From assembly GCA_004194705.1 (NCBI GenBank), contig SADC01001020.1, positions 62,001 through 126,000 on the forward strand: DNA of 64,000 bases. The letters are read 5' to 3'. The position numbers and the translations under genes are program-made. Numbering within the stretch: the stretch's first letter is position 1; every line of letters begins with the position of its first letter. This stretch comes from Ditylenchus dipsaci (Eukaryota; Nematoda; Chromadorea; Rhabditida; Anguinidae). This document shows positions 13,844 through 14,742 of the stretch, in pieces. A model generated the notes under the pieces. The model was not told the origin of the DNA. It made no database searches and saw only the letters and a list, made by a program, of their open reading frames with translations.

Positions 13844-14742
13844 TCAATTGTCTTTAGCAGCAACAGCTCCAAGAATTTTGCCAACGTCCACTTCGCCCTT
13901 GAGTTGATCACAAGAGATCTGGGGCATTTTTAGTTGTTCCACTATAGCAGGGTCAGCCTGGGAGGTTAGCCGGTGAACTTGGTTGCACACTTCGATAGTA
14001 CTCAAATCTGGGTTTTGCATTATGCTCTGAATTAAGGTAATTTTATTTGTGGTTTTTAACACACTTAACCACCTTTATTTGGTCAAGCAACTTGATGCCA
14101 TTGTCGTCTAAGTTGGCTGCAGCTTTGGCAAAAGCTGCTTCAATTGCCTGTTTCTTGTCATCAGCCAGTTTTTGGATGCCAGCCTTAAAACTTATTTGAA
14201 TATTATTACTGGAGTACCACCAACCTGAACTTCAGCAGGTAGTCCAGCAGTCAATTCTTTCAACTTGGCCTCTTTGGCTGCCTTAGGAATAGAAAAGTCA
14301 TAGAAAGTAGTCATAATTTGCTGTTTTACATCTTGGGAAACATTATCCAAAAAGCTCAAGTCAGGTGAGCCAGAAAGCTACTCTAGCAGAGATCTACAAT
14401 ACTTGGGAGAGAACTATGATTTTTTCCGAGGAAAGTACACTGGGTGGAAGAACTCTATTCGTCACAACTTGAGCATAGGTGGCTGCTTTAAGAAGTTGCC
14501 TAAGGAAGGAAGCAATGGAATTAGTAGTGGCACCAATAAAATAGGAAAAGGCCACAAATGGGTGCTGGGACCAGAGCTGGCAGCTGATGTCGTATGAACC
14601 GGAAGACCAGACTTGTTAGTAGTCCACCTGTTTTGTATCTTGGGAAACATTATCCAAAAAGCTCAAGTCAGGTGAGCTCATTTGAGCATTCACCGAAAAT
14701 ACAACTAGAATGGCACTGAATAAGGTAATAAAGCCGAAACAT
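13844..14742 (-). CDS. SXP/RAL-2 family secreted protein
   Basis: Four exons, 167 residues: 14742-14628, 14320-14225, 14183-14073 and 14026-13844. All junctions are in phase 0. Exon 1 encodes a signal peptide (frame ...FITLFSAILVVFSVNAQ), then SSPDLSFLDNVSQD. One surplus T right after the ATG (about 14738) breaks the frame; without it the signal peptide reads through. The mature part is alpha-helical, with the repeated Leu/Ala/Lys pattern of the DUF148 domain (LKELTAGLPAEVQ, DDNGIKLLDQIK, QNPDLSTIEVCNQVHRL). Family members are small proteins secreted by nematodes; divalent-cation binding is reported for some. The odd feature is the 307-bp first intron, made of a copy of the gene's own exon and a piece of the forkhead gene (see findings). 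If this interval is not spliced, the protein is truncated. Confidence 0.8.
14321..14627 (-). other. Putative newly gained intron: exon duplication + forkhead fragment
   Basis: Bases 14321-14370 and 14628-14677 are a direct repeat (48 of 50 identical) of the SXP exon. Between them, 14371-14617 matches the forkhead exon at about 22705-22952 in reverse orientation, with two one-base deletions and about two substitutions, followed by 10 bp of filler. On the minus strand the interval begins GTGGAC after CAG and ends AAAACAG before CAAATT. Removing it joins codons in frame. Confidence 0.8.

What the first reader, a model, noticed from the sequence alone, without database searches (positions are those of the whole stretch)
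14321..14742. A newly born intron made of a self-duplication plus a piece of a forkhead exon
Seen: the SXP/RAL-2 exon is interrupted by 307 bp, made of a 50-bp direct repeat of the exon itself (14321-14370 and 14628-14677, two differences), 247 bp copied inverted from forkhead exon 3 (22705-22952) and 10 bp of filler. On the coding strand the interruption starts CAG|GTGGAC and ends AAAACAG|CAAATT. Removing it gives codons that continue exactly in frame (SQDTKQ then QIMTTFYDF). The two differences in the repeat convert GATGTAAAA to GATACAAAA, which removes a competing GT just upstream of the used donor. Inference: repair of a double-strand break with templated filler created a functional intron. 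Few intron gains are caught with the donor sequence still about 98% alike and in the same window.
Basis: partly seen in the sequence, partly recalled or inferred. Interest (0 to 1): 0.92.

Follow-up and report, generated by a model that had tools for sequence, protein, structure and literature searches.

The report
Repair scar posing as newborn intron
In this nematode genome a 307-base insertion, made of a repeated bit of the interrupted gene, a backwards copy of part of a nearby forkhead gene and ten extra bases, splits an exon that close copies of the gene keep whole; it is likely the scar of a mended DNA break, and although it could in principle be cut out of the RNA as a newborn intron, its end signal is predicted to be too weak, so RNA data must decide.

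Summary
The structure is real. Between 14321 and 14627 an exon of an SXP/RAL-2-like gene holds 307 extra bp: a 50-bp tandem copy of the exon (48/50), an inverted 247-bp copy of forkhead exon 3 (donor about 22710-22958) and 10 bp of filler. Two close paralogs and four distant relatives in the same genome lack it, so it is derived. The filler occurs exactly once more in the window, at 24489-24498, read on the same strand as the forkhead donor and 1.5 kb from it. This suggests two template switches at one locus. The intron claim is weak. The 5' site (CAG|GTGGAC) is fair: 2nd of 25 GTs. The 3' site (AAAACAG) is the worst of 33 AGs and has no pyrimidine at -7 to -4, where 17 reference introns have 2-4. 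The UniRef gene model starts downstream, inside the same exon. The first ATG is out of frame with the exon. The assembly appears to match the PacBio D. dipsaci draft (published account mentions no short-read polishing), so small indels prove little. Best reading: a recent templated repair scar that more likely disrupts the gene. An intron caught at birth, its nuclear source still readable, is not excluded.

The parts
14628..14742 (-). 5' part of the interrupted exon, from the first ATG (14742) to CAG; the frame that continues into the rest of the exon is open but that ATG is out of frame; an in-frame ATG lies at 14681
   Evidence: leader aligned with paralogs
14628..14677 (-). 5' (upstream) copy of the 50-bp direct repeat, ancestral state GATACAAAACAG
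14321..14627 (-). the 307-bp insertion = proposed intron (GTGGAC...AAAACAG)
   Evidence: absent from paralogs A and B
14618..14627 (-). 10-bp filler GTGGACTACT, supplies the putative 5' splice site; exact copy at 24489-24498 (+)
14371..14617 (+). inverted copy of forkhead exon 3: two adjacent substitutions and two one-base deletions against the donor
14321..14370 (-). 3' (downstream) copy of the repeat, derived state GATGTAAAACAG; lies wholly inside the proposed intron; its AAAACAG is the proposed acceptor
14225..14320 (-). rest of the interrupted exon (called exon 2 here), 32 codons, open
14184..14224 (-). ordinary intron, 41 bp (GTTGGT...TTTTAAG), used in the UniRef model
14073..14183 (-). 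exon 3, 37 codons
14027..14072 (-). ordinary intron, 46 bp (GTGGTT...AATTCAG), used in the UniRef model
13844..14026 (-). exon 4, 60 codons and stop
22710..22962 (-). donor stretch inside forkhead exon 3 (minus-strand gene; Pfam PF00250 E 9.4e-19); no other copy but the insert found in the genome
24484..24499 (+). probable template of the filler (15 of 16 bases with the junction), upstream of the forkhead gene, read on the same strand as the forkhead donor

Best explanation
A 307-bp insertion, made of a 50-bp duplication of the exon, an inverted 247-bp copy of the neighbouring forkhead exon and 10 bases of filler, interrupts the first coding exon of an SXP/RAL-2-like gene; it was likely made in one repair event with template switching, and is predicted to disrupt the gene rather than be spliced out as the proposed intron. 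Inferred course: a broken end carrying ...GATACAAAACA was extended, probably first on 24489-24498 and then on 22710-22958 of the forkhead locus. It was then joined back 50 bases upstream of where it had left the exon, so those 50 bases were copied twice. The duplication and the copying are read directly from the sequence; the order, the enzyme and the use of 24489-24498 are inferred. The geometry allows an exact in-frame GT-AG removal, but the AG used would be a former exonic AAAACAG without a pyrimidine tract, so efficient use is predicted to be unlikely. Unspliced, the frame meets a stop after three codons of the insert (KQ-VDY*).
For: Composition and coordinates. No other copy of the donor found: 4 of 4 candidates scored; 40 of 1597 candidates scored. 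Derived state: paralogs A (C268:48776-49394) and B (C268:118200-118815) lack the insertion and carry one copy of the 50 bp; four distant SXP-like loci align ungapped across the spot. Filler template: the 20-nt junction query's score in the plus strand of 22.0-25.2 kb is reached by 4 of 2000 shuffled queries and 6 of 1605 real 20-mers. Weak acceptor: rank 33 of 33, -11.8 bits; 14 tubulin reference acceptors -1.1 to 11.1; 0 of 4 pyrimidines at -7 to -4 against 2-4 in 17 of 17 reference acceptors (14 tubulin, 2 of this gene, 1 forkhead placed by eye). The exact intron ranks 15th of 21 in-frame one-intron solutions. The gene model A0A915DH31 starts at MTTFYDF, downstream of the insertion. An exact GT-AG removal is possible for 1364 of 20000 simulated 50-bp duplications with random inserts (7%; 136 of them at the far edge of the unit as here), so the neat fit is only a mild coincidence. 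All five amino-acid-coding differences of this copy from both paralogs in exons 2-4 change the residue; a sixth exchanges one stop codon for another (classed by eye), so there is no sign of purifying selection.
Against: The putative 5' site is fair for this genome (4.2 bits, 2nd of 25 GTs; reference 3.8-10.1; the gene's own two annotated donors score 1.6 and 1.9). Exons 2-4 stay open over 129 codons. The reference set is small. New introns are known to have weak sites (PMC2809761, passages read). The filler has a second possible source: GACTACT, 8 bases into exon 2 (29 of 20000 shuffles). Over the whole window, both strands, the 24484 match is not rare (21 of 300 shuffles reach its score).
Confidence: 0.63

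Rival explanations
1. One reading: the insertion is a working phase-0 intron, 14627 to 14321, that restores the exon exactly; the forkhead copy is its body, the filler gave the 5' site and the old exon gave the 3' site.
For: Exact in-frame removal; fair donor; in-frame stop if retained, which favours nonsense-mediated decay of unspliced RNA as in the Drosophila model (PMC2809761, passages read); exons 2-4 open; the frameshift in the leader may be an assembly error, since at least three long HSP70 loci (C1177, C170, C126) change frame with no gap (frames worked out by hand; decayed copies are not excluded).
Against: Acceptor worst of 33, no pyrimidine at -7 to -4; all 168 confirmed new Caenorhabditis introns have polypyrimidine tracts (PMC9169325, section 11 read); the public model does not use it; five of five amino-acid-coding differences from the paralogs are non-synonymous.
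Confidence: 0.14
2. The insertion is spliced, but imprecisely: the same donor 14627 joins a stronger acceptor such as 14282 (CTATTCCTAAG), removing 346 bp and with them 13 codons of the old exon.
For: Highest score of 21 in-frame one-intron solutions (8.7 bits). The public model of paralog A (A0A915DLH3) reads ..SFLDN/AAKEAK.., so it uses the matching acceptor in that copy (read by eye).
Against: It removes QIMTTFYDFSIPK, which aligns with family members. The model of paralog A may only be bridging a frame break. The model of this gene does not use it.
Confidence: 0.11
3. Assembly artefact: a mis-joined or chimaeric read built the duplication and the forkhead piece.
For: PacBio-only assembly merged from two CANU runs, no short-read polishing described (PMC6929663, whole text read).
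Against: Insert and donor differ by an adjacent pair of substitutions, and the two repeat copies by another, which an artefact copying the same reads would not be expected to show; the two one-base deletions alone would have fitted an artefact.
Confidence: 0.09
4. Mobile element or introner insertion with a long target-site duplication.
For: Direct repeats flank the insert; a repeat family lies nearby (15407-16219, about 39 other long matches).
Against: The insert is a fragment of a coding exon with no third copy found in the genome; a 50-bp target duplication would be far outside the usual range (recalled).
Confidence: 0.01

Closest known systems
Templated insertion scars of alternative end joining (polymerase theta) and tandem duplications with templated inserts in C. 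elegans (PMC8654963, passages read)
   Same: Templated pieces, 0-1 bp exact microhomology at the joins (by eye), direct duplication, probably more than one template
   Different: The insert is about 250 bp from 8 kb away, whereas the passages describe inserts copied from break flanks; the duplication is 50 bp (helq-1 mutants: about 100 bp to 10 kb)
Intron gain by double-strand break repair (Daphnia, as told in PMC3443670 section 9; eight mitochondrial candidates in Drosophila, PMC3296678 section 10; both sections read)
   Same: Insert flanked by direct repeats inside an exon, GT-AG removable
   Different: Source is nuclear, 98% alike and on the same contig; splicing unproven, acceptor very weak
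[quoted passage not shown] potato RdRp case PMC4974935, abstract read)
   Same: One duplicated exonic copy would supply the 3' splice site
   Different: The unit holds no AGGT; the GT comes from filler; a foreign insert separates the copies
Novel introns of Caenorhabditis (PMC9169325, abstract, passages and section 11 read)
   Same: Nematode, exon-preserving geometry
   Different: There no source sequence was found for any of 168; here a source is plain but splicing is not shown

Membership tests
Templated insertion / template-switch repair scar | Inserted DNA matches another place in the genome | tested here: met
   248/253 to 22710-22962; no third copy found
Templated insertion / template-switch repair scar | Insertion absent from the ancestral locus | tested here: met
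   2 close paralogs and 4 distant relatives lack it; no sister species examined
Templated insertion / template-switch repair scar | Microhomology or short filler at joins | tested here: inconclusive
   0-1 bp exact at each join by eye; filler probably templated but with a second local candidate
Recently gained spliceosomal intron | GT-AG ends that restore the frame | tested here: met
Recently gained spliceosomal intron | Splice sites within the range of the genome's introns | tested here: not met
   donor in range, acceptor far below (14-17 reference introns)
Recently gained spliceosomal intron | Spliced transcripts | not testable with these tools
   no RNA data held; public gene model does not use it
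Intron gain by AGGT tandem duplication | AGGT inside the duplicated unit | tested here: not met
   the 50-bp unit on the coding strand has no AGGT (sequence, read by eye)
SXP/RAL-2 family (PF02520) | Pfam match over the curated cut-off | tested here: not met
   P0001 best family PF02520, 18.9 bits, E 0.0017, cut-off 29.3; 31-38% identity over 45-51 residues to four loci that themselves match PF02520 below its cut-off, so 'SXP/RAL-2-like'
Forkhead (donor gene) | Pfam PF00250 over cut-off | tested here: met
   67.8 bits, cut-off 27
Mobile element / introner | Many copies in the genome | tested here: not met
   (4 of 4 candidates scored): only the insert, the donor and the two paralogs' 50 bp

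The most novel reading that the evidence does not exclude
A spliceosomal intron caught at birth in a nematode: one break-repair event copied two pieces of a nuclear gene neighbourhood (24489-24498 for the 5' splice site, forkhead exon 3 for the body) and re-copied 50 bases of the host exon for the 3' splice site, so that every part of a new intron still has a readable source on the same contig.
Probability: 0.22. Interest if true: 0.82.

Novelty: new member of a known kind. Interest (0 to 1): 0.46.

Why it matters
Source sequences are called the smoking gun of intron gain, yet none was found for 168 confirmed new Caenorhabditis introns (PMC9169325). A 2012 review lists many gains by tandem duplication, but says that the evidence for gains by break repair consisted of matches to mitochondrial rather than nuclear DNA (PMC3443670, section 9). 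This locus has a nuclear source and the ancestral state (paralogs) in one assembly. One look at RNA reads would say whether the raw product of templated repair is spliced at once, badly, or not at all. Even if it is not spliced, it is a clean example of how such inserts arise in exons and of how good an in-frame GT-AG can look by chance.

Tried and rejected
Haplotype or allele: no second haplotig of the forkhead locus was found (40 of 1597 candidates scored, best first); C268 holds paralogs whose wider flanks differ from the window's, not alleles. Mobile element: rejected. The idea that the interrupted stretch was already an intron in the family (suggested by the UniRef model of paralog A) was rejected because four relatives align across it as protein without a gap. 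Selection test: only five amino-acid differences, not polarised, uninformative beyond 'no sign of constraint'. Dating: small indels cannot be trusted in this assembly; the substitutions left are two adjacent pairs, which may have arisen during repair. A wider splice-site set: actin search not answered; HSP70 search answered but no loci could be cut, so the score rests on 14 tubulin introns. PDB search of P0001: 7 chains, best E 0.5, none significant. Exon-level Pfam scans: no SXP/RAL-2 match for the exon pieces alone. Rfam and tRNA scans of the window: no Rfam match and one tRNA of unclear identity. Paper searches (listings seen only): 'intron gain' with 'Ditylenchus' gave 5 papers, none on this locus by title; 'novel intron' with 'template switching' and 'tandem duplication' gave one paper, on domain gain; 'templated insertion' with 'intron gain' gave two.

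Full report
What is there. On the minus strand a gene runs from about 14742 to 13844. Its first exon is split by the insertion into 14628-14742 and 14225-14320; exons 14073-14183 and 13844-14026 follow after introns of 41 and 46 bp. The same two introns are used in the public protein A0A915DH31 of Ditylenchus dipsaci. The window lies in a genome of 226,978,389 bases in 1,359 contigs, close to the 227.2 Mb in 1,394 scaffolds of the published PacBio/CANU assembly (PMC6929663, whole text read). The exact protein match makes the species near certain. The protein's best Pfam family is SXP/RAL-2 (PF02520), but below the curated cut-off; I call it SXP/RAL-2-like.

The insertion. 14321-14627 is extra. 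It contains, in coding order, 10 bp GTGGACTACT, 247 bp that match forkhead exon 3 of the neighbouring gene in inverted orientation (donor about 22710-22958; 248 of 253 aligned letters including a 4-bp junction overlap), and a second copy of the 50 exon bases that precede it (48 of 50). The donor is a real forkhead domain (PF00250, 67.8 bits). The genome search with the 357-bp stretch scored all its 4 candidates and found only the locus itself, the donor and the paralogs' 50 bp. A search with the whole forkhead locus (40 of 1597 candidates scored) added only a 40-bp fragment of exon 2 at 25021-25060 and an unrelated repeat.

Derived state and polarity. Two close paralogs on contig C268 (48776-49394 and 118200-118815) have one copy of the 50 bp and no insertion. 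Of 10 SXP-like loci given to tblastn, four align as protein without a gap across the spot (L016, L017, L021, L022; 31-38% identity, E 8e-8 to 1e-4); five gave only E 0.44 to 9.3 and one nothing. So the interrupted stretch was coding and undivided. Both close paralogs carry GATACAAAACAG, like the upstream copy; the downstream copy GATGTAAAACAG changed later or during repair.

How it arose. The exact 10-bp filler occurs in the window only in the insert and at 24489-24498. There, 15 of 16 bases agree across the junction (AACAaGTGGACTACTA against AACAgGTGGACTACTA). The place lies upstream of the forkhead gene, 1.5 kb beyond the forkhead donor, and is read on the same strand. Within 22.0-25.2 kb, plus strand, so good a match is reached by 4 of 2000 shuffled queries and 6 of 1605 real 20-mers; over the whole window, both strands, by 21 of 300. 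A competing local source, GACTACT eight bases into exon 2, is about as unlikely by chance (29 of 20000), so the second template is probable, not proven. The joins have 0-1 bp of exact microhomology (by eye). A chain exon, 24489, 22710-22958, back to the exon 50 bases upstream is what template switching during break repair would leave. Polymerase-theta end joining is one candidate: C. elegans helq-1 mutants show tandem duplications with occasional templated inserts, and patchwork inserts (PMC8654963, passages read). The enzyme is inference.

Is it an intron? For: exact phase-0 GT-AG removal; a fair donor, 2nd of 25 GTs, 4.2 bits, within the 3.8-10.1 range of 14 tubulin introns of this genome, and better than the gene's own two donors (1.6, 1.9); a stop after three codons of the insert, so an unspliced RNA would be poor. 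Against: the acceptor AAAACAG is the worst of 33 AGs in the stretch (-11.8 bits; reference -1.1 to 11.1) and has 0 pyrimidines at -7 to -4, while 17 of 17 reference acceptors have 2-4. Among 21 in-frame one-intron solutions it ranks 15th; the best uses another acceptor, 14282. The public model starts at MTTFYDF, downstream of the insertion, and does not use the proposed intron. All 168 RNA-confirmed new introns in Caenorhabditis have polypyrimidine tracts (PMC9169325, section 11). Random 50-bp duplications with random inserts can be removed exactly by a GT-AG pair in 1364 of 20000 trials, 136 of them at the far edge as here, so the neat fit alone carries little weight.

State of the gene. ATG 14742 is out of frame with the exon in this assembly (115 bases to 14628). 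I do not lean on this: the published account mentions no short-read polishing, and at least three long HSP70 loci (C1177, C170, C126, frames worked out by hand) and a beta-tubulin locus on C90 change frame without a gap, which points to leftover indel errors, though decayed copies are not excluded. For the same reason the frame breaks in paralogs A and B and the two one-base deletions in the insert may be errors. Exons 2-4 are open over 129 codons, yet all five amino-acid-coding differences from both paralogs change the residue and a sixth exchanges one stop codon for another (classed by eye), so there is no sign of constraint.

Verdict. A recent, well preserved templated repair scar in a coding exon: the copying and the duplication are shown, the repair route is inferred. 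A working intron: possible, but predicted unlikely at the proposed 3' site. RNA and raw long reads would settle it.

Noticed in passing
25021-25060 (copy of 23152-23191): A second small ectopic copy from the same forkhead gene: 40 bp of exon 2, 39/40 identical, direct orientation, 1.9 kb away; repeats checked nearby, no clear flanking duplication.
   Followed up: partly
62395-63199: An 805-bp stretch that matches its own reverse complement at 97%, i.e. a near-perfect palindrome; a foldback element or a PacBio hairpin artefact. Similar self-palindromes at 38881-39446, 42465-42895, 17834-18038, 30266-30426.
   Followed up: no
15407-16219: Repeat of about 0.8 kb with inverted ends (CAGTCAACCCCCGCTATAGTGACACC..); about 39 other long matches, 79-89% alike, among the 40 of 4373 candidates scored; perhaps a short mobile element, about 0.7 kb from the gene.
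   Followed up: no
35642-35759 and 36649-36765: A 118-bp inverted pair, 98% identical, 0.9 kb apart; another candidate templated copy, or element ends.
   Followed up: no
G000:C1016:59039-59083: A 45-bp fragment (89%) of the gene's last exon about 3 kb before the window starts, in the opposite orientation.
   Followed up: no
L011, L012 (G000:C268): The two insert-free paralogs sit in larger duplicated blocks that match each other (92-98% over six pieces, two more near 80%); to the window they match over the gene and its upstream region, plus a few shorter pieces elsewhere.
   Followed up: partly
G000:C1177:3145901-3147602, C170:46123-47932, C126:44767-46454: Long HSP70 loci whose coding frame changes with no gap, suggesting leftover indel errors of the assembly; a warning for every pseudogene call in this genome.
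   Followed up: partly
14371-14617 and 14321-14370: The substitutions since the event are adjacent pairs (one in the forkhead piece, one in the downstream repeat copy); tandem changes might mark error-prone repair synthesis.
   Followed up: no
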